From: Bradyrhizobium sp. CCBAU 051011
Lineage (GTDB): Bacteria; Pseudomonadota; Alphaproteobacteria; Rhizobiales; Xanthobacteraceae
NCBI RefSeq assembly: GCF_009930815.1
Contig: NZ_CP022222.1
Coordinates: 5,684,501 to 5,748,500 of the forward strand
Reading direction: 5' to 3'
Length of the DNA: 64,000 bases
Every line of letters begins with the position of its first letter. The stretch's first letter is position 1. Under the pieces are notes generated by a model, which worked only from the letters and a program-made list of their open reading frames with translations, was not told the DNA's origin and made no database searches. Shown here piece after piece: positions 808 through 32,454 of the stretch. Both the position numbers and the translations under genes were made by a program.

Positions 808-822
808 AGCGCCTGCAGCGGC

Positions 823-1245: not shown

Positions 1246-1259
1246 TTGATATCGCTCAA
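1246..1259 (-). promoter_or_regulatory. FixK/FNR-type operator before the cytochrome c gene
   Basis: TTGATATCGCTCAA matches TTGA-N6-TCAA exactly. Its centre at 1252.5 predicts a class II transcript start near 1211, leaving a 20-nt leader to the ATG at 1191. It therefore supports that start over the open frame extending upstream to 1620. Confidence 0.7.
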
Positions 1260-1727
1260 TGCGACGTTTGGCGAGACTCATAAAGTCACTAAAGTCGCCA
1301 ACGAACCGCCTGAACGGGGTGCCGACCGCTCGACGCAGGCGGCTTAGGAGTTGGGGCAGGCCCCGGCGGTTTTCGTCGGGGCTCCAACTAAATCGGGCGC
1401 CGGCCATGACTGTCATTTCCGTGCCCTTTCGCGCCGTGCTCGTGATGCGATCAAGGTTCACCGAGAATGCCTCGGCATCGCGTGCATCGGTCGATCCAAG
1501 AGACTCAACGAGCAAGAGCAGGTGAAACGATCGCCGGGCCACGCTTGATAGGAACGTTTTGAATTTCTTTCGCAATCGGTCAGCGAGTTGCCCGCCGGTA
1601 GAGCCGGAGTTGATGCACAAGCTGGAAATGAGCCACCCACCTGATTCTTTCGACTGGACATCGCGCTATTGCGAGGGCTTTGCATAAGTTGGCGTCGGAT
1701 GATTCTTTAGCGAGAGATTCGCTCCCG
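1260..1727. other. No recognisable gene
   Basis: The minus strand is open here as an upstream extension of the cytochrome frame, but the product (Arg-rich, no known motif) lies behind the putative FixK promoter. I see no supported gene. Confidence 0.45.
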
Positions 1728-1874
1728 ATGGCGGAGCGGCAGATCGGTCAATTGAGCTTTAAGGACGAGCTGGTGAGTGATGGTGCTCGGGCCAACGCGC
1801 CGCCGGAGCGGGTGTCAGAGCTGCTGCTGTTACTGCAGCATTGGTATGGGCTCTCTGCGATGGATCTAGCTTAA
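1728..1874 (+). pseudogene. IS5-family transposase remnant
   Basis: A short frame with MAERQIGQLSF and FKDELVSDGAR, then PERVSELL joined directly to LLLLQHWYGLS. In intact IS5-group transposases these two blocks belong to the N-terminus but are separated by a few dozen residues. The fragment therefore has an internal deletion and loses everything after WYGLS, including the DDE core. It overlaps the end of the convergent DUF2269 gene by a few bases. No terminal repeats are visible. Confidence 0.65.
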
Positions 1875-2479
1875 TCTGTTTGGATTTCGGTGCGCGGTTG
1901 ATCCTCGCCGTTCCAGGGATATATGCGCGGGATTGCGTAATTCAGCCCCGAAGCGACCGCCACCGCAAGCGCGGTCGCCCAGACAAATTGCATCCAGTCG
2001 CTTGGTCGCAGCGCACCAAGCGAGACAATCACCAGAAGTATCGGAATGTCCAAGAAATGCGTGAACGACGCGAGCTGCTCGTTGCGCGCTCGCGCAAGCT
2101 CCGGGGTCACTCCTCGTGCGGCAATGGCTTGGCGCGTCAGACGCCGCAGCCGCATGAAGTACAGGCGCGTGATCGTGTTCCTCTCGATGAATTCGAAGGC
2201 GAAGAGAAGGACCATTCCGGCAAGCCACGGGACACTCAGAAAGTCCCACCCACCGTGGTAGGAGACGATCAACCACGTGCCGCTCGCGAGCAGAAGGAGC
2301 GCCCCCGGAACGACTAGCCCATCGTAGAACACGGCGATCAAGGTCACCGCCTGGGCGAAAAGCTTCAGGTCGCGCACTTGGCGCGAACGCATATCAGAGA
2401 CGAAGACGCCGACGAGGCCGGCCGACATAAGCATGAGGCCGAGCAGATGGGCAAAGCGCAGTAGCAGGTAGGCGTCCAT
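1871..2479 (-). CDS. DUF2269 family integral membrane protein
   Basis: A 202-residue hydrophobic protein with four or five predicted membrane spans: the N-terminal LLLRFAHLLGLMLM segment, a VTLIAVFYDGLVVPGALLLLASG segment, a LAGMVLLFAFEFIERNTI segment and a C-terminal hairpin. The conserved early His and the overall pattern fit DUF2269 (uncharacterised inner-membrane proteins). ATG 2479 is preferred to the upstream in-frame Met because the family begins with MDAYLLLRF-like sequence. It is divergent from the flavoprotein at 2610, with a symmetric FixK/FNR dyad between them. Role unknown; the context suggests a low-oxygen membrane function. Confidence 0.75.
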   Translation of the reverse strand: MDAYLLLRFAHLLGLMLMSAGLVGVFVSDMRSRQVRDLKLFAQAVTLIAVFYDGLVVPGALLLLASGTWLIVSYHGGWDFLSVPWLAGMVLLFAFEFIERNTITRLYFMRLRRLTRQAIAARGVTPELARARNEQLASFTHFLDIPILLVIVSLGALRPSDWMQFVWATALAVAVASGLNYAIPRIYPWNGEDQPRTEIQTD

Positions 2480-2542
2480 TGCACCATTCGTCCTCACGCC
2501 CCCGAGCGGCATACCAGAATGTCACATTGCCCCCGGGAAACG

Positions 2543-2556
2543 TTGAGATTCCTCAA
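2543..2556. promoter_or_regulatory. FixK/FNR-type operator in divergent intergenic region
   Basis: TTGAGATTCCTCAA is a full dyad (TTGAG-N4-CTCAA). A site centred at 2549.5 would give starts near 2591 on the plus strand (19 nt before the ATG at 2610) and near 2508 on the minus strand (29 nt before the ATG at 2479). One site may thus serve both genes. Confidence 0.7.
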
Positions 2557-2609
2557 AGGTGCCCATTCCACCGCTGCTAAAATAGCTGTTATTGATGTGG
2601 AGGCGATCG

Positions 2610-3062
2610 ATGGATGACTCATTCAGGCGGAAAATCCTTGCGCTCCTGGATCAACACCGCACCATGAGAATTGCGACGCTCCGGCCGGACGGATGGCCAC
2701 AGGTGACCACCGTGGGATATGCGAACGACGGCTTTGCGATCTACTTCCTGTGCGGCCCGGATAGCCAAAAAGCGTCGAACCTGGCGTGCGACGACCGCGT
2801 GTCACTGGCCATCGATGACGATCCCGCCCAGGTTATGGACATCACTGGGCTATCCATGGCGGCGCGGGCAAACGTCGTGGCCGACCCTGCCGAAGCCGAA
2901 AAGGCCATGGAGCTCCTGATGTCGCGGTACCCGGACCAGAAGGGGGTCGACCTACCGATACCGAAACCTTCCGAAGTCCGCATCTTCCGCCTGACACCGA
3001 CGGTCATCTCTGTGCTCGACTACTCCAAGGGCTTTGGGCACACCGATCTCGTCGCCTGCTGA
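2610..3062 (+). CDS. Pyridoxamine 5'-phosphate oxidase-like flavoprotein
   Basis: A 150-residue FMN-binding split-barrel protein. Visible blocks are MRIATLRPDGWPQVTTVGY near residues 18-36, the FLCGPDSQKASNLACDDRVSL strand pair, and a C-terminal VRIFRLTPTVISVLDYSKGFGHTD block. Members bind FMN, F420 or haem and reduce varied substrates; the substrate here is unknown. The start is ATG 2610, with GGAGG at 2599-2603 as ribosome site; the ATG at 2595 would overlap that site. The FixK-type box upstream fits the known occurrence of such proteins in micro-oxic regulons of rhizobia. Confidence 0.85.
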   Translation: MDDSFRRKILALLDQHRTMRIATLRPDGWPQVTTVGYANDGFAIYFLCGPDSQKASNLACDDRVSLAIDDDPAQVMDITGLSMAARANVVADPAEAEKAMELLMSRYPDQKGVDLPIPKPSEVRIFRLTPTVISVLDYSKGFGHTDLVAC

Positions 3063-4922: not shown

Positions 4923-4936
4923 TTGATCGAGATCAA
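4923..4936. promoter_or_regulatory. Consensus FixK/FNR operator
   Basis: TTGATCGAGATCAA is an exact TTGAT-N4-ATCAA FNR/FixK consensus. It lies 97 bp before the zinc-ribbon gene on the plus strand (leader of about 62 nt if class II) and upstream of the haem-domain remnant on the minus strand. Confidence 0.78.
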
Positions 4937-5032: not shown

Positions 5033-5266
5033 ATGGAAACAGAATCCAATATTCGGCGCCAGTGGGGAAAGGTTTGTCCCGGATGCGGCGAGGAGGTGGT
5101 TGCTCCAGATCGGTCCGAATTTGTCAGCGAACGGCTTGTTCTCAATCTCTGGTCTTGCACGGAATGCGGTAATCGGTTCGAAACTGCGTGGACGCCCAAA
5201 GGGGTCGCACCAAAGCAAAGCGACATAGATTGGGAAGCGGTATTTCCGCCACTCTTGGTGGCTTAA
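5033..5266 (+). CDS. Small zinc-ribbon protein
   Basis: A 77-residue soluble protein with two CxxC knuckles, VCPGCGEE near residues 14-21 and WSCTECGNRFE near residues 40-50, a classical zinc ribbon. GGAGGG precedes ATG 5033. The rest is acidic and has no enzyme motif. It sits behind the best FixK/FNR dyad of the window and before a radical-SAM activase remnant, so a role in low-oxygen metabolism is inferred from context only. Confidence 0.72.
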   Translation: METESNIRRQWGKVCPGCGEEVVAPDRSEFVSERLVLNLWSCTECGNRFETAWTPKGVAPKQSDIDWEAVFPPLLVA

Positions 5267-8061: not shown

Positions 8062-8075
8062 TTGATATACCTCAA
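8062..8075. promoter_or_regulatory. FixK/FNR-type operator before opgC-like gene
   Basis: TTGATATACCTCAA fits TTGA-N6-TCAA. It is 113 bp before the OpgC-like gene (predicted leader about 79 nt) and also upstream of the divergent decayed cytochrome c. Confidence 0.65.
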
Positions 8076-8188: not shown

Positions 8189-9400
8189 ATGAAGGTCGAG
8201 CTTGCACTGCCACCGTCGAAGCGGGATTTGCGGCTAGATCTGTTCCGCGGCCTCGCCAACTGGCTGATGTTCCTTGGCCACGTCTCCACCAGCGTGCTGG
8301 CCTGGTTTTCGTTCCGGAATTACGGCTTCAGCGACGGCGCCGACCTGTTCGTGTTCATCTCCGGCTACACCTCGGCGCTCGTCTTCGGCAGACGAATGCT
8401 CGAGGGCGGCTTCGTCTTCGGAACGACAAGGCTGCTGCGGCGCGTGTGGCAGATCTACGCCGCCCACATCCTGCTGTTCGTGTTCTATCTGGCTTCCGTC
8501 CATTTGCTCTCAAACAGCTTCAACGCGCCCGGTCTCATAGACCGGTTCAATGTCGTGCCGCTGCTGAACGCACCGGTCGAAACCATCACGCAAGGGCTGT
8601 TGCTCCGGTACAAGCCGCTGAACCTCGACGTGCTGCCGCTCTACGTCGTCCTGATGGGTGCCTTTCCGCCGGTGCTCTGGCTGATGCTCAGGCACCGCAA
8701 CTGGGTGATGCTGGGATCTGTATCGCTGTATTTCGCCGCCCGGCAATTAGGCTGGAATCTGCCCTCCTATCCATCGGGCGTTTGGTATTTCAACCCGTTC
8801 GCGTGGCAGCTTCTTTTCGTGCTTGGCGCATGGCTGGCGCTCGGTGGCGCCAATACGCTGCATTTCCTGGTGCGCTCCCGGGCCGTCCTCGTGGTCGGGC
8901 TGGCTTATTTGCTTTTTGCGGCCGTCATGACGCTATCCGGGCTGATACCGGAGCTTCAGACGTTGTTTCCGCGCGTTCTGTTCGACGCCTTCAACCCGAA
9001 CGACAAGACCAATCTGGCGCCCTATCGCTTCCTGCATCTCGCCATCGTGATCATTCTGGGTGCGCGGTTCATACCGATCGATGCGGCAGGGCTGCAGGCT
9101 GCGATCTGGAAACCGCTGATCAAATGCGGCCAGCAATCCCTCGAAGTGTTTGCCGTCGGCATCTACCTTTCATTCATCGGGTATTTTATCCTGACGATGA
9201 CTTCCGACGGGATTATCGCTCAATTGCTGGTTGGAACCGCCGGCATCGTAATCATGACGGCCGTCGCCTACTACCGGTCCTGGTCGAAGCGCGTTGAAAA
9301 ATCTGCTCACGGCTATGCTAATCAGCCTGCTAACCAAAATCGTCACGCGCCGGCTGCCGAACTGGTCCAGCCAGATATTAAGTTAGTCGGCTCCGCCTGA
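8189..9400 (+). CDS. OpgC-family membrane acyl/succinyl transferase
   Basis: A 403-residue multispanning protein with ten or so hydrophobic segments. The opening RDLRLDLFRGLANWLMFLGH and the block YGFSDGADLFVFISGYTSAL are diagnostic of OpgC, which decorates periplasmic glucans with succinyl groups. The C-terminal 40 residues are polar and cytoplasmic. TAGGAG lies before ATG 8189. Glucan synthesis genes (opgG/opgH, ndvB) are absent here, so the acceptor is not defined by context. The upstream FixK-type site suggests low-oxygen induction. Confidence 0.88.
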   Translation: MKVELALPPSKRDLRLDLFRGLANWLMFLGHVSTSVLAWFSFRNYGFSDGADLFVFISGYTSALVFGRRMLEGGFVFGTTRLLRRVWQIYAAHILLFVFYLASVHLLSNSFNAPGLIDRFNVVPLLNAPVETITQGLLLRYKPLNLDVLPLYVVLMGAFPPVLWLMLRHRNWVMLGSVSLYFAARQLGWNLPSYPSGVWYFNPFAWQLLFVLGAWLALGGANTLHFLVRSRAVLVVGLAYLLFAAVMTLSGLIPELQTLFPRVLFDAFNPNDKTNLAPYRFLHLAIVIILGARFIPIDAAGLQAAIWKPLIKCGQQSLEVFAVGIYLSFIGYFILTMTSDGIIAQLLVGTAGIVIMTAVAYYRSWSKRVEKSAHGYANQPANQNRHAPAAELVQPDIKLVGSA

Positions 9401-9865: not shown

Positions 9866-10114
9866 TTACTTTGGCCCAATGTGATGGGGGTCGCTCCTCG
9901 GGCCGCCGCTGTAGTGATGGCTGCCGCGGGGGCCAGCCTTACCGGTGGTTACGCCGGTATGCTTCTTCTTGCCCATGTGATGAGGGTCGCTCCTCGGGCC
10001 GCCACTGTAGTGGTGGCCCGTTGTTTCGGTATCGGTCTTCTCGGTCTGGGCCATCGCCGGCAAGGCGACGAGCGAAAGCGCAGTAGCGGCGACTAGGAGG
10101 TTGCGGGTGATCAT
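9866..10114 (-). CDS. Secreted His/Gly-rich peptide with tandem HHYSGGPRSDPHH motif
   Basis: An 82-residue protein with a clear signal peptide (MITRNLLVAATALSLVALPAMAQ). The mature part is about 60 residues and carries the motif HHYSGGPRSDPHHMG near residues 34-48 and again (ending HHIG) at the C-terminus, separated by a basic KKKHTGVTTGKAGPRG spacer. Such closely spaced His pairs suggest periplasmic metal binding. It is divergent from copA across a 143-bp region with a FixK2-like dyad. GGAGAAAC precedes ATG 10114. Copper buffering is an inference; the family is unnamed to me. Confidence 0.72.
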   Translation of the reverse strand: MITRNLLVAATALSLVALPAMAQTEKTDTETTGHHYSGGPRSDPHHMGKKKHTGVTTGKAGPRGSHHYSGGPRSDPHHIGPK

Positions 10115-10172: not shown

Positions 10173-10186
10173 TTGCGGTAGATCAA
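10173..10186. promoter_or_regulatory. FixK2-type operator between His-rich peptide gene and copA
   Basis: TTGCGGTAGATCAA matches the rhizobial FixK2 form TTG(A/C)-N6-TCAA. Centred at 10179.5, it would start transcripts near 10221 (37 nt before copA) and near 10138 (24 nt before the His-rich peptide gene). Confidence 0.6.
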
Positions 10187-10243: not shown

Positions 10244-10276
10244 GACAGGAGATCGTCATGAGCGGGGACGCGCCAG
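10244..10276 (+). repeat. 33-bp direct repeat, copy 1 (copA start region)
   Basis: The ribosome site, ATG and first six codons (MSGDAP) of copA recur with two mismatches at 13660-13692, in the same position relative to the methyltransferase gene there. Confidence 0.85.
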
Positions 10277-12771
10277 TGTCAGTGTTGCGGTGCCGGGCGC
10301 GGCATAGAATCGAGCTTCGCATCGGTGGAATGACCTGCGCCCATTGCCCGCCGGCCATCGAGAAGGCTGTCGCGGCGGTGCCGGGGGTAAAGTCGGCAAG
10401 CGTCAACTCAAGCACCAGAATTGCGAGGATTGATTACGATCCTGCACGAACGAAGGTCTCGGACATACTTCATGCCATCCGTACCGTTAGATATACGGCA
10501 GGGACCGCCACGATGCGCGTTCCAATCCAGAACATGCATTGCAGCTCTTGCCTCGTTCGTGTCGAGCTTGCGCTGCAGATGACGCCTGGGGTTGTTGCGG
10601 CTCGTGCGAGCCTCGGAACCAATGCCGCGGATATCGAGTATCAACCGGAGAAAGCAGACTTTGCGACCATCCGAGAAACGATCGAGTCGGCCGGTTACCG
10701 GGTTGCCGAACCAAAAATCGACGCGAAAGCCGAGTTGCTCGATCCCGCCGAAGCAGCCAACGAGCAAGAATACCGCACATTGATGCGAAAGTTCTGGTTT
10801 GCAGCCGTGATTTCGGTTCCAGTCATGGCGCTAAGCTATCCCGATCTGGTTCCGGGTTTGCGGGATTGGATGCCGATGGGCAGCGAAACCCGCCGGATCG
10901 TTTGGGCGCTTCTCGGCGTGCTGAGTTTTCCCGTGCTAGTCTGGGCCGGTTCGCAATTCTTCGTCGGCATGTGGGACGCGCTGAAACATCGTGCCGCCAA
11001 CATGCATACCCTGATCGCAGTCGGCATCAGCGCGGCCTTTGCCTATTCGGTCGTTACCGTTGCGTGGCCGCAAATCTTTCCGAGTATGGCACTTGCCGAG
11101 GTTTTCTGGGACGTCACCGATGTTGTCATTGCACTGGTCGTCCTCGGGCTTGCGCTTGAAATCAAGGCCAAGGGCCGAACCTCGCAGGCGATCAAGAAGC
11201 TGATTGGATTGCAGGCGAAGACTGCGCGCGTAATCCGCGAAAACAAAGAGATCGATATCGCCGTTGAAGAGGTGGTTGTCGATGACACGGTAGTCGTGAG
11301 GCCGGGCGACAAGATTCCCGTCGATGGTCGTGTGAACTCTGGCTCGAGCGCCGTGGATGAATCGATGATCACTGGGGAATCCATGCCTGTCGAGAAGCAG
11401 GTGGGCGACGAGGTGATCGGTGGTACGCTCAACAAGACGGGCAGCTTCCGCTTTACTGCAACCAAGGTCGGCAAGGACACCGCACTTGCAACGATCATCA
11501 ACATGGTCAAGGACGCGCAGAGCTCGAAGGCCCCGATCCAGCGCGTTGTAGATACGGTGTCCGGCTATTTCGTGCCATCGGTGATGATCCTGGCGGTTCT
11601 GGCCGCGATCGTCTGGTACGATTTTGGACCGGAACCGCGACTTGTATTTGCAATCGTGGTTTTCGTGACGACCCTGATCATTGCCTGCCCGTGCGCGCTC
11701 GGTCTCGCCACGCCAACTTCTCTAACGGTTGGAATCGGCAAAGGAGCTGAGAATGGGATTCTGATCCGGTCGGGTGACGCACTTCAGGCCGCCGAAAGGC
11801 TCGATGCCGTCATTCTCGACAAGACCGGAACCATCACCAAGGGCGAGCCGGCGCTTACGGATGTGGTCGTTACCAAAGGTTACGACGAAGCAGAAGTGCT
11901 CCGCCTGACGGCGTCACTGGAGCGCGGGTCCGAGCATCCCCTCGGCGAGGCAATCGTAAGGGGAGCTAGGGCCCGTGACCTGAAGCTTTCTGATGCGACT
12001 GAATTTTCCGCTATTCCCGGACACGGCGTCGGCGGCAAGATCGATGGCCGTGGAGTCTTATTTGGCAACGCCAAGCTGATGCGCGATCGCGGAATCGCAA
12101 TCGATATGCTGGAAGGGGATTGGGGCCGTCTGGCCAATGAAGGCAAGACGCCAATGTATGTCAGCGTTGACGGCAAGTCCGCCGGACTGGTGGCGGTCGC
12201 CGATACGGTGAAGCCGGATTCGAAGGCCGCGATCGACACCTTGAAGGCGCTCGGTATCGAAGTCGTGATGCTCACCGGCGACAATGAACGGACCGGACGC
12301 GCTATTGCGAGGCAGGTTGGCATCGAGCGGGTGCTGGCTGAGGTCTTGCCCGATGACAAAGCTCACGAGGTGCAGAAGTTGCAGCTCGAAGGAAAGTCGG
12401 TCGGGATGGTCGGCGACGGCGTCAACGATGCTCCGGCGCTGGCTCAGGCTGATGTGGGCTTTGCGATAGGGACGGGCACCGACGTCGCCATCGAAGCCAG
12501 CGATGTCACCCTGATCAGAGGGAGCCTGATAGGCGTTGTGACCGCAATCGAGATCAGCCGCGCAACCATGAGGAATGTGCGCCAGAACCTGGTTGGCGCA
12601 TTCGGCTACAATGCCCTCGGCATTCCCGTAGCAATGGGCGTGCTTTATCCCTTCATGGGACTTCTGCTCTCGCCCCTGATTGCCGCGGTCGCCATGGCAT
12701 TCAGCTCGGTTACCGTTGTAACCAATGCCAACCGGCTTCGACTGTTTAATCCCCGGAGGACCGCATCATGA
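10258..12771 (+). CDS. copA: Cu(+)-exporting P1B-1 ATPase (CopA-type)
   Basis: An 837-residue inner-membrane copper pump that expels Cu(I) to the periplasm using ATP. Two N-terminal HMA metal-binding domains carry GGMTCAHC (Cys 27/30) and NMHCSSC (Cys 94/97). Eight membrane segments follow, with TGES in the actuator, the CPC metal site in [13 protein letters not shown] (about residue 477), the phosphorylated DKTGT at Asp 521, [15 protein letters not shown] and [20 protein letters not shown] and [12 protein letters not shown] supply the P1B-1 TM7/TM8 ligands. AGGAG precedes ATG 10258. The first codons and ribosome site are duplicated from, or shared with, the gene at 13674. The cupredoxin gene overlaps its stop by 4 bp. 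Confidence 0.95.
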
Positions 12772-13145
12772 GCCCCGATCGTTGGATCGCTACCGCGGCC
12801 GGCTTGGCGCTGATCGCATTTATCGTCTGGTTTTTCTGGCTTAAACGCTCGACGGGGTTTCGCGCCAGCGAAACCACGGGCGGCTACCAGGAAGCAATGA
12901 TTTTGGTAAAGGGGGGCTATACGCCCGACACCATCATTGTTCGAAGCGGGCGGCCTGTCCGGCTGAACTTCCGGCGGGAAGAGACGGCGTCCTGTTCGGA
13001 CAAGGTGATCTTCGCCGACTTCCAGAAGAGTGCCGACCTCCCCACAGGGCAGACTGTCGCCGTGGAGTTACTGCCGAAGTCGCCCGGCGAGTTTGGCTTT
13101 GGCTGCCCGATGGGGATGTTCCGGGGGAAGCTGGTCGTTGAGTAG
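12768..13145 (+). CDS. Membrane-anchored cupredoxin-domain protein
   Basis: A 125-residue protein with one N-terminal membrane helix ([20 protein letters not shown]) and a periplasmic cupredoxin-like fold. Likely copper ligands are the Cys in ETASCSDKV and the C-terminal [13 protein letters not shown], with the Cys/Met spacing of EfeO/cupredoxin_1-type domains. No conserved His ligand is visible where plastocyanins have one. It overlaps copA by ATGA and is surely co-translated, so it probably accepts or delivers periplasmic copper beside the pump. Confidence 0.85.
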
Positions 13146-13357: not shown

Positions 13358-13371
13358 TTGATCTGAGTCAA
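13358..13371 (+). promoter_or_regulatory. FixK/FNR-type operator before DUF2933-methyltransferase operon
   Basis: TTGATCTGAGTCAA fits TTGA-N6-TCAA. A class II start near 13406 would leave a 17-nt leader containing AGGAGG before ATG 13423, an ideal arrangement. Confidence 0.75.
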
Positions 13372-13422: not shown

Positions 13423-13677
13423 ATGTCAGTGCAAGATCATTCCAGCCATCAAGAGCCCACCCGCGCGGGAATGTCCACGAAATCGCGCGTGGGGCTGGTC
13501 CTGGTCGGGTTCCTGATCATCGCCGGCGCGCTCCTGTTCACCGAACATCAGGCCCATGTTTTGGGATTGCTGATCTGGTTGCCGCTGCTCGCCTGTCCAT
13601 TGATGCACCTGTTTATGCACGGCGGACACGGTCGTCACGGAGGTCGTCAACACGATAGCGACGGGAGATTGTCATGA
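13423..13677 (+). CDS. DUF2933 family small membrane protein
   Basis: An 84-residue protein with a polar N-terminus (SVQDHSSHQEP), two membrane helices (VGLVLVGFLIIAGALLF and LGLLIWLPLLACPLMHLFM) and a His/Gly-rich tail (MHGGHGRHGGRQH). The PLLACPLMHLFMHGGHG block is the DUF2933 signature and has Cys, Met and His suited to soft-metal binding. AGGAGG lies 8 nt before ATG 13423. It overlaps the next gene by ATGA. The family is frequent in copper-resistance islands, but its role is unproven. Confidence 0.85.
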   Translation: MSVQDHSSHQEPTRAGMSTKSRVGLVLVGFLIIAGALLFTEHQAHVLGLLIWLPLLACPLMHLFMHGGHGRHGGRQHDSDGRLS

Positions 13678-13692
13678 GCGGGGACGCGCCAG
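13660..13692 (+). repeat. 33-bp direct repeat, copy 2 (methyltransferase start region)
   Basis: The same ribosome site and MSGDAP coding start as at 10244-10276, two mismatches in 33 bp. Here the segment overlaps the end of the DUF2933 gene, so it is probably the ancestral location. Confidence 0.85.
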
Positions 13693-14833: not shown

Positions 14834-14930
14834 TCACGGGAGCTTGGCATGCGACCTTCTTCGACCGGTTGCTTCAAAGATTTTCGCTGCGCGCGTGAGC
14901 GGAGCTACCGCTGCTTCTATCGGGACTGCC

Positions 14931-16283: not shown

Positions 16284-16295
16284 GAGGTCACCGCC

Positions 16296-17489: not shown

Positions 17490-17586
17490 CCGTTCGCATC
17501 CAGCATTCTTAAGGATTGTGCCTGCTATCAGAAATCTTGCTGATTTAGGTCAAGTTCCTCGGATGAAGCTGGTTCAAGTTAGCGCC

Positions 17587-18294
<708 letters not shown>

Positions 18295-18298
18295 CATC

Positions 18299-20662
18299 AT
18301 GTCGGCGCTCGACATCAAGCTCTTTCGCGATGCGAGGCGCTTGTGGGCGCAGGTGCTGGCGATTGCGCTGGTGATCGGCGGCGGGGTGGCGACGCTGATC
18401 CTCGCGGTCGGCTCACACCGCTCGCTCGATGAAACCCGGATTGCCTATTACGAGCGATACGCATTCGCCGATGTTTTTGCGCTGGCCAAGCGTGCGCCCA
18501 AGGCGCTGGTGGACCAGATCGCGCAAATTCCGGGCGTGACCGCAGTCGATGCGCGCATTGCAAGGCTCGCATTGGTCGACGTGCCCGGATTTTCCGAACC
18601 TGCCAGCGCGCAATTCGTCTCGCTGCCGGATAGCGGCGAGCTCACGCTCAATCGGCTCTATCTGCGCGCCGGGCGTTTCCCTGAACCCGGACGGGCGGAA
18701 GAGGTGGTAGTCAACGAGAGTTTCGCCCAGGCGCATGGCTTTACACTTGGCGCCGGCTTTTCCGCCATCTTGAATGGCAGGAAGCGCCAGCTCGTCATCG
18801 TTGGTACGGCGCTGTCTCCCGAGTTCATTTACACGGTGGGACCTGGAGACCTCATGCCGGACGACCGCCGCTATGGCATCGTATGGATGTCGGAAAAAGC
18901 ACTTGCGAGCGTCTACGATCTCGACGGTGCATTCTCTTCAGTCTCCGTCAAGCTGCAACGCGGCGCGTCGGAGTCAGAGGTTATCGCCCGGCTTGATTCC
19001 CTGCTGGACGCCTACGGCGGGCAAGCGGCCCACGGCCGCAAGGATCAGACCTCGCATGCCTGGCTCGACCATGAGCTTGATATGCTCAACAACATGAGCC
19101 GGACGCTGCCCCCGATTTTCCTTTTGGTGTCGGCGTTTCTCGTTAACCTCACGCTCAGCCGGCTGGTGGCGCTGGAGCGCGAGCAGATTGGGCTGCTGAA
19201 AGCCTTGGGTTATCGCGACAGCAGCATTGCATTGCACTATCTGAAGTTTGTGGCGCTCATCGTTCTGATCGGAATTGTGATCGGCAGCGTGGTCGGGACG
19301 CTGTTGGGATTGCGCGTCACCGCGCTATTCGGCGATTTTTTTCATTTTCCGTTCCTTCTGTTCGCTCGATCACCGGATCTTTATGCGATCGCGGGCGCGT
19401 TAAGCGCCGCCGCAGCCATCGTTGGTGCAATCCGCGCACTAAGGGAGGTTGTGAAGCTGCCGCCGGCAATCGCGATGCAGCCGCCCGCGCCACCGAGTTT
19501 TCACCGCCTGGTGCCCGTAACATTTTCGCTGGACCGAATCGTTTCGCAGCCGACGCTGATGATGCTCCGCAACATCTCGCGCCATCCGGTCAGAGCCGCG
19601 TTCACGACCCTCGGAATGGCGCTTGCGACCGCAATACTCGTGGTATCGCTGTTTACCCGCGACACCATGGAGCAGCTGATCGACGTTACCTACTTTCTGG
19701 CTGATCGGCAGGATGCGACGATCGGCTTTGTCGAGAAGCGGACCGAGAATGTTGTCCTGCAGGTGGCGCGACTCCCTGGCGTGCTTGCAGCCGAACCGTT
19801 TCGAGAAGTTCCGGTGCGGATCCGGCACGGCAATGTAGAGCGTCGCGTCACGATCAGCGGCCGCCGTCCAGAGTCCGATCTCAGGCGCATCATCGATGTC
19901 GATCTGCGGCCGGTGGTGCTTCCCGCAACAGGTCTAGCGATCTCCAGCATGCTCGGGGATATCCTGGGCGTCGGGGTCGGAGATTCGGTGGAGGTCGATC
20001 TGCTGGAAGGGGCGCGGCGAACGACATCCCTGCAGGTCGTGGCGCTGGTAGAGGACTACTTTGGTATCCGGGGCATGATGGACATGCAGGCTCTGGCGCG
20101 CCTGATACGCGAAGGGCCTGTCGTGAACAGTGTCAACCTCAGCTTGGACGATAATCGCAGAGACGAATTCTACGCCGCCATCAAGGCGATGCCGGCGGTA
20201 AGCGGAGTGGCGCTGCAGAGGGTTTCGCTGGCAAATTTTCGCAAGACGGTCGCACTCCTCATCACCACCATGGCCAGCATTTACACGGGACTCGCGGCGG
20301 TCATCGCGTTCGGGGTTGTCTATAACAACGCGAGAATCTCGCTCTCGGAACGGGCGCGGGAACTGGCGAGCTTGCGGGTGCTCGGCTTCAGGCGCGGTGA
20401 AGTCCTGCGCATCCTGCTGCTCGAACTGGCGATCCTGACCCTGATCGCCCAGCCGCCGGGATGGGCCGTGGGTTACGGCCTGGCGTGGATCATGAAAACC
20501 AATCTGGCCGGCGAGCTGATGCGTGTGCGTCTGGTCGTCGAGCATTCGACCTATGTAAGCGCAAGCGCGGTCGTCCTTCTGGCGGCTATTGCATCGGCCT
20601 TCATCATCCGAGAGCGCATCAACCGACTGGACCTCGTGGCCGTCCTCAAAACGCGGGATTGA
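18299..20662 (+). CDS. FtsX-like ABC transporter permease (two-FtsX-domain type)
   Basis: A 787-residue inner-membrane protein. An N-terminal helix (LWAQVLAIALVIGGGVATLIL), a large periplasmic MacB-like core, three helices with LVNLTLSRLVALEREQIGLLKALGY (an FtsX domain), a second helix-plus-core unit starting LRNISRHPVRAAFTTLGMAL, and a last FtsX domain with ISLSERARELASLRVLGFRRGEV. This tandem layout is that of large macrolide/lipoprotein-type permeases. With the ATPase and HlyD protein it would form a tripartite pump that works from the periplasm or membrane rather than importing. Substrate unknown. Confidence 0.92.
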   Translation: MSALDIKLFRDARRLWAQVLAIALVIGGGVATLILAVGSHRSLDETRIAYYERYAFADVFALAKRAPKALVDQIAQIPGVTAVDARIARLALVDVPGFSEPASAQFVSLPDSGELTLNRLYLRAGRFPEPGRAEEVVVNESFAQAHGFTLGAGFSAILNGRKRQLVIVGTALSPEFIYTVGPGDLMPDDRRYGIVWMSEKALASVYDLDGAFSSVSVKLQRGASESEVIARLDSLLDAYGGQAAHGRKDQTSHAWLDHELDMLNNMSRTLPPIFLLVSAFLVNLTLSRLVALEREQIGLLKALGYRDSSIALHYLKFVALIVLIGIVIGSVVGTLLGLRVTALFGDFFHFPFLLFARSPDLYAIAGALSAAAAIVGAIRALREVVKLPPAIAMQPPAPPSFHRLVPVTFSLDRIVSQPTLMMLRNISRHPVRAAFTTLGMALATAILVVSLFTRDTMEQLIDVTYFLADRQDATIGFVEKRTENVVLQVARLPGVLAAEPFREVPVRIRHGNVERRVTISGRRPESDLRRIIDVDLRPVVLPATGLAISSMLGDILGVGVGDSVEVDLLEGARRTTSLQVVALVEDYFGIRGMMDMQALARLIREGPVVNSVNLSLDDNRRDEFYAAIKAMPAVSGVALQRVSLANFRKTVALLITTMASIYTGLAAVIAFGVVYNNARISLSERARELASLRVLGFRRGEVLRILLLELAILTLIAQPPGWAVGYGLAWIMKTNLAGELMRVRLVVEHSTYVSASAVVLLAAIASAFIIRERINRLDLVAVLKTRD

Positions 20663-20665
20663 CCG

Positions 20666-21895
20666 ATGCCGGCAAACTGGACGAAGCGGATCATAGGCAT
20701 TGTTATCGTCAGCGCGATCGCCGCGCTGTTGGCGTGGTTTGCCTGGCCGCGGCCGCTCGCTGTCGATCTTGCAACCGTCGCAAGAGGGCCGCTCGAAGTA
20801 ACCGCCGACGACGACGGCAGGACCAATGTGCGGCACATCTACACGGTATCAGCGCCTGTTGGCGGCAAGGTTCTAAGAATTTCCCACCCTATGGGTATGA
20901 AGGGTTCCTCGCTCCATGTCGGAGACCAGGTGACCGCCAACGAGACCGTCGTCGCGCTCATGCAGCCGACGCCGCCGAGCTTTATCGACGTGCGCTCTCG
21001 CGATCAGCTTGAAGCGGAGGTGATCGCGGCGGACGCTTCAATCCAGCAGCAAGCTGCCGAAATCCGTCGGCTCGAAGCTGCGCTCGATTTTGCCCGTACG
21101 GAATTCCAGCGAGCGCAGGCACTGGCGCGGACGCAAACGATCTCCACTCAGGCCTTTGACAAAGCTAGATTTGAAGTCGCCAGCAACGAAGCCGCGCTGG
21201 CGAGCGCGAAGGCCCAACTGGACTTCCGCCGCAACATGCGGACAAGCCTCGCCGCACGATTGATCGACCCATCCAACGTGGCTGCGCCGACAGATCCGGC
21301 GTGCTGCGTGCGGGTGCTTGCTCCGGCCAGCGGGCGGATCCTGAAGATCGTACAGGATAATGAAACGGTGGTTCCGCCTGGTGCGCCGTTGGTCGACATC
21401 GGTGATCCGAACGACCTTGAGATCGTATGCGATCTGCTGTCCACCGACGCGGTGCAGATCAAGGTCGGTGCGCCGGTCCGGATCGACGGGTGGGGCGGCC
21501 CGGCGGTTCGGGGCAAGGTGGTCCGTGTCGATCCGGCCGGTTTCCTCAAGGTGTCGGCCCTCGGCATCGAGGAGCAGCGGGTTCGCGTTACCATCGACTT
21601 CGTCGACCCGCCGGAGCTTTGGTCCCGGCTGGGGCACGATTACCGGGTCATCGTACGTGTAACCATCTGGAGCGCGGATGACGTTCTGACGGTGCCCGTG
21701 AGTGCGTTGTTTCGAAAGGGAGAAGACTGGGCGTTGTTCGCTGTCGAGGACGGCCGCGTGCGTCTAACGTCGGTCAAGATAGGCCATCGCAACAACCGCA
21801 TGGCGGAAGTGCTGGAGGGCTTGGCCGCGGGACGACAGGTGGTTCTCCATCCCAGCGATAAAATCTCTGATGGGGTCCGCGTTGCCCAAAGGTAG
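20666..21895 (+). CDS. HlyD-family periplasmic adaptor subunit
   Basis: A 409-residue membrane-fusion protein. It has an N-terminal anchor helix (IIGIVIVSAIAALLAWFAW), the first lipoyl half (YTVSAPVGGKVLRISHPMGM), a coiled-coil hairpin (about residues 110-195, rich in Ala, Gln and Glu), the second lipoyl half (VRVLAPASGRILKIVQDNE), then beta-barrel and membrane-proximal domains ending in VLEGLAAGRQVVLHPSDKI. It starts 3 bp after the permease stop and completes the exporter on the inner-membrane side. No outer-membrane TolC is encoded in the window. Confidence 0.92.
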   Translation: MPANWTKRIIGIVIVSAIAALLAWFAWPRPLAVDLATVARGPLEVTADDDGRTNVRHIYTVSAPVGGKVLRISHPMGMKGSSLHVGDQVTANETVVALMQPTPPSFIDVRSRDQLEAEVIAADASIQQQAAEIRRLEAALDFARTEFQRAQALARTQTISTQAFDKARFEVASNEAALASAKAQLDFRRNMRTSLAARLIDPSNVAAPTDPACCVRVLAPASGRILKIVQDNETVVPPGAPLVDIGDPNDLEIVCDLLSTDAVQIKVGAPVRIDGWGGPAVRGKVVRVDPAGFLKVSALGIEEQRVRVTIDFVDPPELWSRLGHDYRVIVRVTIWSADDVLTVPVSALFRKGEDWALFAVEDGRVRLTSVKIGHRNNRMAEVLEGLAAGRQVVLHPSDKISDGVRVAQR

Positions 21896-23848: not shown

Positions 23849-23862
23849 TTGCGCTAGGTCAA
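23849..23862 (-). promoter_or_regulatory. FixK2-type operator before the carboxylesterase gene
   Basis: TTGCGCTAGGTCAA fits TTG(A/C)-N6-TCAA. Centred at 23855.5, it would place a minus-strand start near 23814, 19 nt before the ATG. Weaker than the TTGA sites. Confidence 0.5.
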
Positions 23863-25308: not shown

Positions 25309-25314
25309 TCTAGA
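25309..25314. repeat. 6-bp target duplication of IS481 copy B, right
   Basis: TCTAGA, identical to 24255-24260. Confidence 0.85.
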
Positions 25315-27472: not shown

Positions 27473-27486
27473 TTGATTTTGCTCAA
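27473..27486 (+). promoter_or_regulatory. FixK/FNR-type operator before the P1B-5 ATPase gene
   Basis: TTGATTTTGCTCAA fits TTGA-N6-TCAA. A class II start near 27521 gives a 22-nt leader to ATG 27543. Confidence 0.72.
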
Positions 27487-27542: not shown

Positions 27543-29840
27543 ATGCCGTTTGAGCGCGTCCTGCGGTGGACACTAGTTACGATAGCGGTCGCCGGGCTTA
27601 CCGCGGGGCTTGCCGCGCATGCCGTTGGCCGACCGGGTTTGGCTGATCTTGCGTGGACGCTCGGCACGGCGCCTGTGATCATCGGACTTGCGATCTCGAT
27701 CGTCAGGGATTTCCTGGCTGGCCGACTGGGCGTCGACGCGATCGCGTTGTTGTCGATGAGTGCGGCGCTTGTGCTCGGGCAGCCCCTGGCCGCCGCGGTG
27801 GTCGCCCTGATGTATTCCGGCGGCAATGTGCTCGAGGAGATTGCGATCGCCCGTGCTGAGCATGATCTGCGCTCACTGGTGGATCGTGCCCCACGCCAGG
27901 CACACCGACGAATCGGTGAAGAAATCGAGCAGGTGCCGATCGAAGCGGTCTCCGTTGGCGATCACCTCCTGGTGCGTGCTGGCGAGATCGTGCCGGTGGA
28001 CGGCGTCGTCTCTTCGATTGCGGCGACCATCGACGAGTCGGCGATCACGGGCGAGCCGATCCCGCTCGCCAAGGTCCGCGGCGCCGCGGTCCTTTCCGGC
28101 TCCCTTAATGCAGGCGAAACCTTCGAGTTGACAGCCACTTCGCTCGCCGGCGAAAGCACCTATGCTGGCATCGTACGGATGGTGACGGCGGCGCAGACCG
28201 CAAAAGCGCCTTTCGTGCGGCTCGCCGACCGCTATGCCCTGATTTTGCTGCCCGTGACGCTCGTGGTTGCGCTCGTCGCGTGGCTGATCTCTGGCGATCT
28301 CACCCGCAGCCTGGCCGTGCTGGTGGCGGCGACGCCCTGTCCGCTAATCCTGGCAGCACCGGTTGCTTTCATCGCCGGCGTAGCGCAGGCAGCCCGGCGC
28401 GGCGTCTTGGTGAAAGGCGGCGGTGCGCTGGAGGCACTGGCGCGTGCGCGTACTGTGCTGTTCGATAAGACCGGCACGCTGACGGTGGGTGGCGCGCGGC
28501 TGCTCTCCGTCGAGGCTGCGCCGGGTCAGAGCGCGGAGGAGGTGCTAACGTTGGGAGCCTCGCTCGAGCAGGCTTCGCACCATGTGCTCGCCAAGGCGGT
28601 CGTCGCCGCGGCCGTCGAGCGCGGCCTGAAGCTGAAAGTCCCCGAACAAGTCAGAGAGAGCATGGGTGCCGGCTTACACGGTGTCATCGAGGGCCGACAG
28701 GTGAGTGCGGGCTCGCGCGAAATGATTCTCTCAAGTGAACGACCGTCGCCATGGGAGCTGCGCGCGATCCGACGCGCCTCGTGGCGATCGGCGCTGATCG
28801 TCTTTGTGTCCGTGGACGGGCGCCGGATCGGAGCGCTGCTGTTAGCCGACGAGCTTCGATCTGACACACCGCGAGCGATCCGACTGCTACGAGAAGCAGG
28901 CATCGCGCGAATGGTCATGGTCACCGGGGACCGGGCGGCTGCCGCGCAGGCAATCGGGGCAGCGCTTGATCTCGATGCCGTGCTCGCCGACCGCGTACCT
29001 TCCGACAAAGTCGAAGCGGTACGCACCGAACAGCGGCTCAATCCGACCATTATGGTCGGCGACGGCATTAACGACGCGCCTGCGCTGGCTGCGGCGGATA
29101 TAGGGGTCGCACTTGGCGCGCGGGGCGCCAGTGCCTCGTCGGAAGCGGCCGATGTGGTGATCCTCACCGATCGTCTCGATCGCGTCGGCGAAGCGATCAC
29201 CATCGCGCAGCGGGCGCGGCGCATAGCGGTCGAGAGCATTATCGTGGGCATGAGTTTGTCCCTGCTGGCGATGGGGGCCGCAGCCATCGGCTGGCTCGAT
29301 CCCGTGCCGGCGGCAATCGTCCAGGAGGTGATCGATGTCGCCGTGATCCTGAATGCGTTGCGCGCCCTGACCCCGGCCCATGGCAGGAGCGGCGGTCGCA
29401 TTACCTTGGAACAAGGACAGGAGCTGCAGCATGACCATCAAGCCCTGCTCAAGGATCTTGATCGATTGCGCAATATCGTCGACGCGCTCGACGATGCGGC
29501 GGCCGAGAAAGGAGCGGCGCTGATCGCGGAAGCCAATGGGCTGGTCCAGAATAGGGTCGTGGCGCATGAGCGCGATGACGAGGGCAGTGTCTATCCGCAG
29601 CTCGCTCGGGTGTTGCGCGACCGTCACGGCCTCTCCGCGATGAGCCGGGCGCACCGTGAGATCCTGCACCTCGCACGGCTTTTAGCCCGCGTGGCGGAAG
29701 ACCTGCCGACCGAGAAGGTCGACCGCTACCTTCTCCGCGACGCACAGCGGGTGATCGAGGCGATCGAGACCCTGGTGCGTATGCATACCGCCCAAGAAGA
29801 GGACATCTACGAAGCCGTAGCGTCGCAGGGCGCAGTTTAA
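27543..29840 (+). CDS. P1B-5-type metal ATPase with C-terminal hemerythrin-like domain (Nia-like)
   Basis: A 765-residue inner-membrane metal pump. There is no N-terminal HMA domain. The actuator has ITGEPIP, the transmembrane metal motif is TPCPLILA (about residues 264-271) instead of CPC, phosphorylation is at FDKTGTLT (Asp 308), and VTGDRAAA plus VGDGINDAPALAAADIG complete the nucleotide domain. Residues about 621-760 form a hemerythrin-like bundle with HDH, HERDDE, AHREI and HTAQEEDIYE supplying di-iron ligands. TPCP plus hemerythrin defines P1B-5; the Sinorhizobium Nia protein of this class exports Ni and Fe. Di-iron sensing of O2 or redox state is plausible. The FixK-type box upstream agrees with low-oxygen use. 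Confidence 0.92.
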   Translation: MPFERVLRWTLVTIAVAGLTAGLAAHAVGRPGLADLAWTLGTAPVIIGLAISIVRDFLAGRLGVDAIALLSMSAALVLGQPLAAAVVALMYSGGNVLEEIAIARAEHDLRSLVDRAPRQAHRRIGEEIEQVPIEAVSVGDHLLVRAGEIVPVDGVVSSIAATIDESAITGEPIPLAKVRGAAVLSGSLNAGETFELTATSLAGESTYAGIVRMVTAAQTAKAPFVRLADRYALILLPVTLVVALVAWLISGDLTRSLAVLVAATPCPLILAAPVAFIAGVAQAARRGVLVKGGGALEALARARTVLFDKTGTLTVGGARLLSVEAAPGQSAEEVLTLGASLEQASHHVLAKAVVAAAVERGLKLKVPEQVRESMGAGLHGVIEGRQVSAGSREMILSSERPSPWELRAIRRASWRSALIVFVSVDGRRIGALLLADELRSDTPRAIRLLREAGIARMVMVTGDRAAAAQAIGAALDLDAVLADRVPSDKVEAVRTEQRLNPTIMVGDGINDAPALAAADIGVALGARGASASSEAADVVILTDRLDRVGEAITIAQRARRIAVESIIVGMSLSLLAMGAAAIGWLDPVPAAIVQEVIDVAVILNALRALTPAHGRSGGRITLEQGQELQHDHQALLKDLDRLRNIVDALDDAAAEKGAALIAEANGLVQNRVVAHERDDEGSVYPQLARVLRDRHGLSAMSRAHREILHLARLLARVAEDLPTEKVDRYLLRDAQRVIEAIETLVRMHTAQEEDIYEAVASQGAV

Positions 29841-30564: not shown

Positions 30565-30840
30565 GAGTAGTCTTCTTGCTCCGACGCTAGTTGGAAGATT
30601 TTCGCCAATCAAATTGCAAGTTCTCGCACTTTACTTTCGATCAACAACAATCGGTTGACAAAGAGCAGTCGCACGGGATGGCGACGAGCCGCGGGGGACC
30701 ATCCGCAACGCTCAGCATTGGAAAATCCTAACCGAGCGGTTTGCCGGAGGAGGGATTGACGGGAATGAAATAAAAAGAGCGACGACGACGCATTATCGCT
30801 GGCCATGACCATAGGACTGGCTCTGAGCAGACGCGCCGGG

Positions 30841-31596
30841 CTAGAGCGCCCATCCGAACACGCGTTGCAAAGTCGCCCTGGCGTTTGAATCGAACCAGCG
30901 CCCGTGGCTGAGAATAATGCGTTCTGGCTGCCATGACAGCATTCTTTGGGCCGCCGCTCGCGTCTTTCGTTTCTGCAAAAGGAGCGGCAACCGCATGCCG
31001 AAAAATATTTGGCCGCGCGGATAGTACATTCCGGTCAGCTTGGCGGCGAACCGCCAGGGCTGCCTGATCTTGTCAAGTTCAAGGTTTATGATGGTGTCAG
31101 CCAGTATGAGGGTTTTCGACTCCTTGTGGAAGAAAACCATCTCCCCGAAAATTCCTCCGGGAACGGCGGTCTGATCAATTTCGGCGCGCCATTCCTCCGG
31201 CGGTTCGATGCCGATGTCTCTATCGAAATGCACATCGATGCCCCGCGAGCGGGCACGCTTGCGTGCGCGCGGAGAGGCCCAGGCAACCGCATCCGGAAAC
31301 GCACGCGACCACTCGCCAATGTGCGCGTAATGGAACTGGTTCGGCGATACAAGGTGACGGACTGTGCCCATCGCCTGCAGGCGGTCAGCGAGCGCAGGCT
31401 CGAATGCGATGGGGGAGTGGATGAACAGGTCGCCGTTGCCGAGCCGCACCACGGTCATCCGAGTAGTAAACGGCAATGGAAGCCTTACTCCGGCCGTCGT
31501 CAAATACTCGAAAGGACCGTCCACGATACCGATATTCCGGGCGACCGGCTTATATTGATTTACAGGTTCGTAGAGCTCTGAGGGGGCATCGGCCAT
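30841..31596 (-). CDS. DUF4336 domain protein (metallo-beta-lactamase-like)
   Basis: A 251-residue soluble protein starting MADAPSELYEPVNQYKPVA. The core VDGPFEYLTTAGVRLPLPFT, MTVVRLGNGDLFIHSPIAF, HLVSPNQFHYAHIGEWSRAF, GEMVFFHKESKTLILADTII and ERIILSHGRWF follows DUF4336, a branch of the metallo-beta-lactamase fold that has lost the HxHxDH motif but keeps isolated His and Asp ligands. The reaction is unknown. Met 31596 fits the family start; upstream in-frame ATGs at 31617 and 31671 are possible. No strong ribosome site. Confidence 0.82.
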   Translation of the reverse strand: MADAPSELYEPVNQYKPVARNIGIVDGPFEYLTTAGVRLPLPFTTRMTVVRLGNGDLFIHSPIAFEPALADRLQAMGTVRHLVSPNQFHYAHIGEWSRAFPDAVAWASPRARKRARSRGIDVHFDRDIGIEPPEEWRAEIDQTAVPGGIFGEMVFFHKESKTLILADTIINLELDKIRQPWRFAAKLTGMYYPRGQIFFGMRLPLLLQKRKTRAAAQRMLSWQPERIILSHGRWFDSNARATLQRVFGWAL

Positions 31597-31967
31597 TGTC
31601 GTATCGCCAATCAACATGGCTTCGAACTCGATCACGCCGATGATAGCACGTCTAATCCCAATCCCATGCAAGCTTCATTTCGGTGAACCCAAGCCCCCGC
31701 ATCGCGCGACAGGGTCGATTCTGCTCGGAGCCCGAACGAGACATTTCGGCGACTTCCGCTTTGGCTGATGAACCAGCGTAGGAAACTGTCTCCGAATTGT
31801 AGGGCCGCGGGTTATTAGGTCGTGTACTCGGATTAGCCGCGTTCGACGTCCGCTTGTCCCAAAAATCATCCGTTCGGAACGATTTTTGGTTTTAGCATCG
31901 GCGCGGGACCACCTCCGGGGGGCGCCCGCCTCGTTCTCCGCTGAAAGCGCGGTGGCGGCGGCGGGAC
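31597..31967. other. No recognisable gene
   Basis: Spacer between two minus-strand genes. A hairpin-like pair of complementary AAAATCRTTC/GAACGATTTT tracts near 31861-31893 (ACGATTTTTGG) could end transcription of the EF-hand gene, but its stem is imperfect. Confidence 0.35.
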
Positions 31968-32381
31968 CTACTTCCTGGTCCCGTGCATAAAGGCTTGCAT
32001 CTCTTCCAGGACGAGCTTGCTATCCTTGTTGCTGTCCATTGCCTTGAAGACTCGTTCGTGGGCCGCCTGAAACTCTGCCAACGAGATGGCTCCGTCGCCA
32101 TCGGCGTCCATAAGCGCAAACATCATGCGGAACATCATCGGAGGCCCCATCGCGTCCCCGCCCATCCCGCTGCGACCCTTCATACCGCGACCCATCATAT
32201 CTCCACCGCCCATCATGCCTTGTCGCTCTCCAGACTGGCCTGAAGGAGGTGTCGTTTGCGCTGGCGCCGGTACTTGGTCCGATCCCGGATGATGGGCCCC
32301 GTGATCGGATGGTGATTGAGCGAACGCGGAATAGCTCAGGGTAGTAAATAGCAGCGCTGCTGCAATGATTGGACCTCGCAT
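31968..32381 (-). CDS. Secreted EF-hand protein, paralog 2
   Basis: A 137-residue exported protein: signal peptide MRGPIIAAALLFTTLSYSAFAQ, a linker rich in His, Pro, Gln, Met and Gly (including HGAHHPGSD and repeated MMGRG-type units), then two EF-hand loops starting DADGDGAISLAE and DSNKDSKLVLEE. The second loop has Ser where paralog 1 has Gly. GGAGGG precedes ATG 32381, and a FixK/FNR-type dyad is 60 bp upstream. It probably binds calcium in the periplasm; metal binding by the linker is possible. Confidence 0.85.
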   Translation of the reverse strand: MRGPIIAAALLFTTLSYSAFAQSPSDHGAHHPGSDQVPAPAQTTPPSGQSGERQGMMGGGDMMGRGMKGRSGMGGDAMGPPMMFRMMFALMDADGDGAISLAEFQAAHERVFKAMDSNKDSKLVLEEMQAFMHGTRK

Positions 32382-32440
32382 GGCTGTCCCTCCGGCGTTA
32401 ACCTGAAGTAACAATGATGCCGATCTGGACCGAGTTCGGC

Positions 32441-32454
32441 TTGAGGCAGATCAA
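32441..32454 (-). promoter_or_regulatory. FixK/FNR-type operator before EF-hand gene 2
   Basis: TTGAGGCAGATCAA fits TTGA-N6-TCAA. A class II start near 32406 leaves 25 nt to ATG 32381. Confidence 0.68.

What the first reader, a model, noticed from the sequence alone, without database searches (positions are those of the whole stretch)
1246..32454. A dispersed FixK/FNR-type regulon across unrelated genes of the first half of the window
Seven exact TTGA-N6-TCAA dyads (1246, 2543, 4923, 8062, 13358, 27473, 32441) and two TTGC-N6-TCAA variants (10173, 23849) all lie between genes. By simple counting an eight-base pattern is expected about once in 64 kb at even base composition. Most sit where class II activation would leave a 17-40 nt leader to the chosen ATG, and several serve divergent pairs. 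They precede a cytochrome c, a flavoprotein, DUF2269, a zinc ribbon, OpgC, CopA, a DUF2933-methyltransferase operon, a P1B-5 ATPase and an EF-hand protein. This suggests that unnamed families here (DUF2269, DUF2933, zinc ribbon, EF-hand) belong to the micro-oxic response.
Basis: partly seen in the sequence, partly recalled or inferred. Interest (0 to 1): 0.75.

Follow-up and report, generated by a model that had tools for sequence, protein, structure and literature searches.

The report
Low-oxygen switch sites across gene cluster
These repeated DNA sites look like genuine switch points of the known low-oxygen (FixK2-type) control system of Bradyrhizobium, and they form one end of a much larger 300-kilobase block that is packed with such switches and carries extra copies of the oxygen-sensing control genes.

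Summary
The dyads are real and far above chance: 9 exact TTGA-N6-TCAA in the window against 0.66 expected; 20 other spacings give 0-3 each. In B. diazoefficiens a DUF2933 operon of matching gene order and a PNPOx-cytochrome c pair fall 5- to 83-fold in a fixK2 deletion (PMC9104804). So the FixK2 reading is largely right and, for its best example, already known. DUF2269 is not supported. Two relatives have an accessory FixL-FixK pair in or beside a dyad cluster. Binding and oxygen response in this strain are untested.

The parts
1246..1259 (.). Exact dyad before a cytochrome c gene on the - strand (ATG 1191, motif CASCH; gap 54 nt)
   Evidence: the same dyad stands before a paralogous cytochrome gene at 5,665,919. 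Not tested in other genomes
823..1191 (-). Cytochrome c-like protein
   Evidence: CxxCH; weak NCBIfam match to cytochrome c6, below cut-off
1871..2512 (-). DUF2269 membrane protein, divergent from PNPOx; control by site 2543 not supported
   Evidence: Pfam; found in 3 of 60 genomes, no dyad in the 2 relatives
2543..2556 (.). Exact dyad, most likely for PNPOx (gap 53 nt)
   Evidence: dyads 48-49 nt before PNPOx in G029 and G055
2610..3062 (+). Pyridoxamine 5'-phosphate oxidase-type flavoprotein
   Evidence: Pfam; same family as the published FixK2-dependent blr4240
4923..4936 (.). Exact dyad between a zinc-ribbon ORF (+) and an 83-aa ORF (-)
   Evidence: conservation not tested
5033..5266 (+). 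77-aa ORF with CPGC and CTEC motifs (zinc-ribbon-like); gap 96 nt
   Evidence: no NCBIfam match
8062..8075 (.). Exact dyad before OpgC (gap 113 nt) with a TATGAT-like sequence about 20 nt after it
   Evidence: dyad in 5 of 6 relatives at 74% identity or more, 4 of 12 more distant ones
8189..9400 (+). OpgC
   Evidence: Pfam 3.9e-130
10173..10186 (.). TTGC-N6-TCAA variant between HYS (-) and CopA (+)
   Evidence: identical letters 56 nt before HYS in G046, against 58 here; absent upstream of CopA in the 4 other close relatives
9866..10114 (-). HYS: small protein with a signal-like start and repeats of HHYSGGPRSDPHH
   Evidence: no family match
10258..12771 (+). CopA-type copper P1B ATPase with CPC motif
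12768..13145 (+). Cupredoxin-like protein
   Evidence: Pfam
13358..13371 (.). Exact dyad before the DUF2933 operon (gap 51 nt to ATG 13423), -10-like TAGATT 21 nt after it
   Evidence: exact dyad at -51 to -63 in 16 of 18 relatives; published operon of the same order has a box at -59
13423..21895 (+). Operon-like run: DUF2933, isoprenylcysteine-type methyltransferase, hypothetical, formate/nitrite transporter, AdoMet synthetase, ABC ATPase, FtsX/MacB permease, HlyD adaptor
   Evidence: Pfam; same order apart from the transporter as bsl7992-bll7986 of B. diazoefficiens
23849..23862 (.). TTGC-N6-TCAA variant before a carboxylesterase gene (-, ATG 23792, gap 56 nt)
   Evidence: same letters as the published box of groEL5; conservation not tested
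27473..27486 (.). Exact dyad before the P1B ATPase with hemerythrin domain (gap 56 nt)
   Evidence: 11 of 19 relatives at -64 to -73; 31 of 53 in a second, overlapping sample
27543..29840 (+). P1B-type metal ATPase with TPCP motif and C-terminal hemerythrin domain (P1B-5 by recalled definition)
32441..32454 (.). Exact dyad before the EF-hand gene (-, gap 59 nt)
   Evidence: in 13 relatives an EF-hand gene before the ATPase has an exact dyad
31968..32381 (-). EF-hand protein
   Evidence: Pfam
37242..37255 (.). Exact dyad only 13 nt before an MFS-type gene (37269); does not fit class II activation of that start
51648..51661 (.). Exact dyad without a convincing target; possibly chance

Best explanation
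The sites are binding boxes of FixK2-type CRP/FNR activators. When oxygen falls, the haem sensor FixL phosphorylates FixJ, FixJ raises FixK, and a FixK dimer binds the 14-bp box centred about 41 bp before the transcript start and recruits RNA polymerase (class II). In this genome the cascade is multiplied: besides a standard fixL-fixK2 locus at 6.97 Mb, whose fixL reads in two frames, two intact FixL with FixJ and two FixK2-like proteins lie inside the dyad-rich 300 kb of which this window is the right end. The window's targets (metal-transporting ATPases, cytochrome c, flavoprotein, OpgC, the DUF2933-methyltransferase-ABC operon, EF-hand protein) are one arm of a low-oxygen survival programme. 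Shown here: boxes, positions, recurrence in relatives, regulator sequences. Shown elsewhere (B. diazoefficiens): FixK2 dependence of a same-order operon and of same-family genes. Inferred: binding and oxygen response in this strain, and which regulator paralog acts.
For: Nine exact dyads against 0.66 expected and a sharp preference for spacing six. In the 300-kb region 71 of 74 dyads are intergenic and 45 of 74 within 130 nt of a called start; for 94 dyads of other spacings 52 and 21; for sampled positions 35% and 7%. Position-conserved boxes: DUF2933 16 of 18 relatives, P1B ATPase 11 of 19 and 28 of 53, EF-hand 13 of 13 that precede the ATPase gene, OpgC 5 of 6 close relatives, PNPOx 2 of 2. 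FixK2-like regulators with the E..SR helix and the C183-equivalent cysteine; FixL and FixJ. Published fixK2-deletion effects on the corresponding operon and families.
Against: No binding, transcript-start or expression data for this strain. The box is shared by FixK, FNR and related proteins (PMC2908626, passages), and eight regulators here have the E..SR motif. 7 of 19 and 22 of 53 ATPase relatives lack the box in the expected place; 8 of the 21 of these examined are not explained by an EF-hand gene upstream, and 4 of those have no dyad within 3 kb. CopA itself has no box in 4 of 5 close relatives. DUF2269 has none in 2 relatives. Sites 1246, 4923 and 23849 were not tested in other genomes.
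Confidence: 0.85

Rival explanations
1. The boxes are read mainly by another member of the family, such as the FNR-type protein at 6.955 Mb (direct oxygen sensing by an iron-sulphur cluster) or another E..SR regulator (for example one responding to nitric oxide), rather than by FixK2-type proteins.
For: Eight E..SR regulators are encoded; L028 has cysteines at 15, 18, 26 and 114 as expected of an FNR type. FNR, FixK and DNR motifs are virtually identical (PMC2908626, passage).
Against: In B. diazoefficiens the corresponding operon and families fall in a fixK2 deletion. The two CRP/FNR proteins over the family cut-off inside the region are FixK2-like.
Confidence: 0.12
2. The dyads are chance, produced by the lower GC of the region, or are carried by a repeated element.
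For: GC is 0.57-0.61 in the region, and 0.62-0.65 in 16 of 24 flanking 20-kb stretches. The TTGC class is only weakly enriched. Some dyads lie in duplicated segments. Sites 37242 and 51648 may be chance.
Against: 0 of 100 shuffles reach nine. Other spacings and permuted half-sites, subject to the same composition, stay low. Low-GC stretches just left of the region (5.32-5.42 Mb) have no dyads. Position-conserved boxes stand before different genes.
Confidence: 0.01
3. Some boxes repress rather than activate: bound FixK blocks the start.
For: The dyad at 37242 ends 13 nt before an MFS-type start, and 2543 is only 30 nt from the upper DUF2269 start.
Confidence: 0.02

Closest known systems
FixLJ-FixK2 regulon of Bradyrhizobium diazoefficiens (USDA 110 / 110spc4)
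   Same: Box TTGA/C-N6-T/GCAA; box 40-90 nt before many starts; DUF2933-methyltransferase-hypothetical-mat-ABC-permease-HlyD gene order; PNPOx and cytochrome c; stress, chaperone, CBS, phosphoketolase and PEP synthase genes
   Different: Here 31% of the genome's exact dyads lie in one 300-kb region that has two further FixL-FixJ and two further FixK2-like genes. I did not have the USDA 110 genome to compare clustering or sequences, and the main regulon paper (Mesa 2008) is not held
Accessory FixL-FixK pairs beside dyad clusters in G029 and G046 (same genus, unnamed)
   Same: FixL and FixK neighbours in or beside clusters of 32 dyads (160 kb examined) and 14 dyads (80 kb examined), with many of the window's target genes
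   Different: One accessory pair each instead of two
FNR regulon
   Same: Nearly identical box and class II geometry (recalled; box similarity)
   Different: The two region regulators have Cys only at 30 and 183 and at 179, not an FNR-type cysteine set

Membership tests
FixK2 regulon | 14-bp box TTGA/C-N6-T/GCAA before the genes | tested here: met
   Seven exact and two variant boxes before genes; consensus from PMC9104804
FixK2 regulon | Box placed for class II activation | tested here: met
   Leader 17-37 nt for 9 of 12 pairs; 3 longer. Transcript starts are not known
FixK2 regulon | Box recurs before orthologous genes | tested here: met
   Met for 6 of 9 sites (10173 in one relative only); DUF2269 not met; 1246, 4923, 23849 not tested in other genomes
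FixK2 regulon | A FixK2-type regulator and FixLJ in the genome | tested here: met
   Three FixK2-like proteins, two intact FixL with FixJ
FixK2 regulon | Low-oxygen induction dependent on FixK in this strain | not testable with these tools
   Known only for matching genes of B. diazoefficiens
FNR-controlled regulon | Regulator with iron-sulphur cysteines encoded with the targets | tested here: not met
   The two regulators in the region lack them; one FNR-type protein exists at 6.955 Mb
Integrative genomic island | Defined ends with integrase and att repeats, often at a tRNA | tested here: inconclusive
   Low GC and duplications; a tRNA-Arg at 5.356 Mb with a 22-nt repeat at 5.581 Mb, but in its 5' part; integrases at the ends were not sought by family search

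The most novel reading that the evidence does not exclude
The region is a self-contained low-oxygen survival island that carries its own duplicated FixL-FixJ-FixK2 cascades beside many targets, and that grew by duplicating genes together with their FixK boxes. In this strain, where the standard fixL reads in two frames, the island copies would have taken over oxygen sensing for the whole cell. Two relatives (G029, G046) carry an accessory FixL-FixK pair in or beside a dyad-rich cluster with many of the same targets, which suggests that regulator and regulon travel together.
Probability: 0.35. Interest if true: 0.65.

Novelty: new member of a known kind. Interest (0 to 1): 0.42.

Why it matters
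It supports FixK-type control for several poorly described families (DUF2933, the EF-hand protein, the P1B ATPase with hemerythrin domain, OpgC) across Bradyrhizobium through recurring sites. It also points to a genome in which about a third of the exact FixK-type boxes and two extra oxygen-sensing cascades sit in one region, a natural case for asking how duplicated global regulators divide or share the same box.

Tried and rejected
Considered and rejected: chance; DUF2269 as a conserved target; dyads 37242 and 51648 as ordinary promoters; an integrative element ending at the tRNA-Arg at 5.356 Mb (no clear att pair). The first gene caller was too strict and was replaced; the second still misses genes such as DUF2933, so intergenic counts are relative. 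Searches read minus-strand loci in the wrong orientation; redid the regulators and the two region FixL. Paper searches for a region of this kind (listings only) showed none by title; OpgC with FixK and Bradyrhizobium gave 0 papers, tRNA array with Bradyrhizobium 0. These cover only the held open library.

Rows dropped before counts: 2 of 21 DUF2933 hits gave no local alignment. Of 76 named-genome loci of the ATPase, 53 passed the filter of 60% identity and an alignment starting within 20 residues; 21 of the 22 without a dyad were examined further, the 64%-identical one not. 3 of 9 CopA loci were dropped because the alignment began late. For OpgC the first 19 of 30 loci were examined. The ATPase samples overlap in species. 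In one of the two DUF2269 relatives the gene is in two frames, so its start is approximate. The family census used 163 genes of 70 aa or more that do not cross stretch ends and pass a score filter, and the tool shows only the first 25 families of each list.
Full report
Observation. The window has nine exact TTGA-N6-TCAA dyads, two more than listed (37242, 51648), against 0.66 in dinucleotide shuffles. Spacing is the sharpest control: in the 400 kb around the window a spacing of six gives 74 dyads and the 20 other spacings 1-12 each; in the window nine against 0-3. Within the region 71 of 74 dyads lie between called genes and 45 of 74 within 130 nt of a called start; of 94 dyads with other spacings 52 and 21 do, and of sampled positions 35% and 7%.

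Setting. The genome is 9.10 Mb in one contig with 237 dyads; the reversed pattern has 30. The close named relatives of the P1B ATPase are Bradyrhizobium, apart from one Bradyrhizobiaceae bin at 83% identity, so the genus is inferred. Of the 237 dyads, 74 lie between 5,436,404 and 5,736,148, 3.3% of the genome. GC there is 0.57-0.61 per 20 kb; 16 of 24 flanking stretches have 0.62-0.65, but low GC also extends to the left (5.32-5.42 Mb) without dyads. The window (5,684,501-5,748,500) is the right shoulder. A census of 163 genes left of the window finds CBS domains (9 and 3 genes), BON domains (9 in the first half), universal stress proteins (2 and 3), small heat-shock proteins (2 and 2), two GroEL, Lon- and FtsH-type proteases, phosphoketolase, PEP synthase, trehalose-phosphate synthases, PHB synthases and cation P-type ATPases (lists capped at 25 families). 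Many segments are duplicated inside the region, some with a dyad in both copies. Dyads are also frequent around the standard fixL-fixK locus (8 in 40 kb).

Regulators. Of 30 CRP/FNR proteins over the family cut-off, eight have the E..SR recognition motif. Three are FixK2-like: one beside the standard fixL at 6.97 Mb and two inside the region, at 5.499 and 5.567 Mb. The two region copies align end to end with FixK2 of PDB 4i2o and keep its recognition helix; where that chain has Ser (the C183S change) they have Cys. Two FixL over the family cut-off lie in the region, each beside a 205-aa ORF of FixJ length; two region proteins match the FixJ model. The standard fixL reads in two overlapping frames, 6,968,285-6,968,827 and 6,968,805-6,969,731: a frameshift or a sequencing error. 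Among 60 genomes of the genus, 48 have a FixL over the cut-off and 3 have two: this one, G029 and G046. In G046 the second FixL and a FixK lie between OpgC and the HYS-CopA-cupredoxin-DUF2933 block (14 dyads in the 80 kb examined). In G029 they lie 72 kb from the ATPase, near one end of a run of 32 dyads.

Recurrence of the window's sites in relatives. DUF2933 (13358): exact dyad at -51 to -63 in 16 of 18, one at -189, one without; a -10-like TAGATT 21 nt after the box in the window. P1B ATPase (27473): 11 of 19 at -64 to -73, one at -115, seven without; in a second, overlapping sample 31 of 53 within 150 nt, 28 of them at -64 to -75. Of 21 of the 22 without, 13 have an EF-hand gene within 340 nt upstream, and all 13 have an exact dyad before it, 11 of 13 at 71-74 nt. 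The other 8 are unexplained, 4 of them without a dyad within 3 kb; six other spacings gave no dyad in any of the 21. In the window the EF-hand and ATPase genes are apart and each has its own dyad (32441, 27473). OpgC (8062): 5 of 6 at 74% identity or more, 4 of 12 more distant ones. PNPOx (2543): 48-49 nt in both relatives seen. HYS/CopA (10173): the same letters at 56 nt from HYS in G046 only; CopA lacks a box in the other 4 close relatives. Cytochrome c (1246): the same dyad before a paralogous cytochrome gene in the region. DUF2269: none in 2. Zinc ribbon (4923) and carboxylesterase (23849): not tested.

What is already published. PMC9104804 (passages, and part 1 of the figures-and-tables section) gives the FixK2 box as TTGA/C-N6-T/GCAA and lists, as lower in the fixK2 deletion at 0.5% oxygen: bsl7992 DUF2933 (-23.0, box at -59), bll7991 methyltransferase (-22.8), bll7990 (-19.7), bll7989 mat (-5.3), bll7988, bll7987 and bll7986 ABC, permease and HlyD (-33.1, -17.4, -5.6); blr4240 PNPOx (-25.1, box at -69) and blr4241 cytochrome c (-83.3). 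The window has the DUF2933 genes in the same order with one extra transporter gene. I compared order and family names, not sequences. PMC6515984 (sections 16 and 18 read, other passages) lists several of the region's families as induced at low oxygen. PMC10454721, PMC2908626, PMC4999443 and PMC4842269 were seen as passages only. Mesa et al. 2008, the main FixK2 regulon paper, is not held, so more of these targets may already be listed there.

Mechanism. FixL senses oxygen, FixJ activates fixK, FixK binds the box as a dimer and recruits RNA polymerase (known system; PMC10454721 and PMC9104804 passages). Here the sequence features are shown; binding, the acting paralog and the oxygen response are inferred. 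An FNR-type reader cannot be excluded from the box alone.

Verdict. DUF2269 should be dropped. The new part is the 300-kb concentration with its own duplicated regulators.

Noticed in passing
G000:C1:6968285-6969731 (L053, L054): The standard fixL reads in two overlapping frames, so the only intact FixL copies found lie in the dyad-rich region; could be a sequencing error.
   Followed up: partly
G000:C1:5329991-5335256 (L264): An array of 25 tRNA genes with many specificities left of the region.
   Followed up: no
G000:C1:5356330-5356406 and 5580586: A lone tRNA-Arg(CCG) whose 5' part has a 22-nt direct repeat inside the region; no clear att pair.
   Followed up: partly
window 1-811 and 24253-25313: Two nearly identical inverted copies (99.8% over 1062 bp) of an IS481-type transposase segment; the first begins just before the window.
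   Followed up: no
G000:C1:5559603-5562637 and 5671683-5674694: A 3-kb segment duplicated at 93% identity with an exact dyad in both copies.
   Followed up: no
window 15376-16155: A formate/nitrite transporter gene sits inside the DUF2933 run here; it is not listed in the published operon.
   Followed up: no
window 37242-37255: An exact dyad 13 nt before an MFS-type gene, where bound FixK would block rather than activate if that start is right.
   Followed up: no
window 9866-10114: A small protein with two HHYSGGPRSDPHH-type repeats and no family match stands divergent to CopA and recurs in G046.
   Followed up: partly
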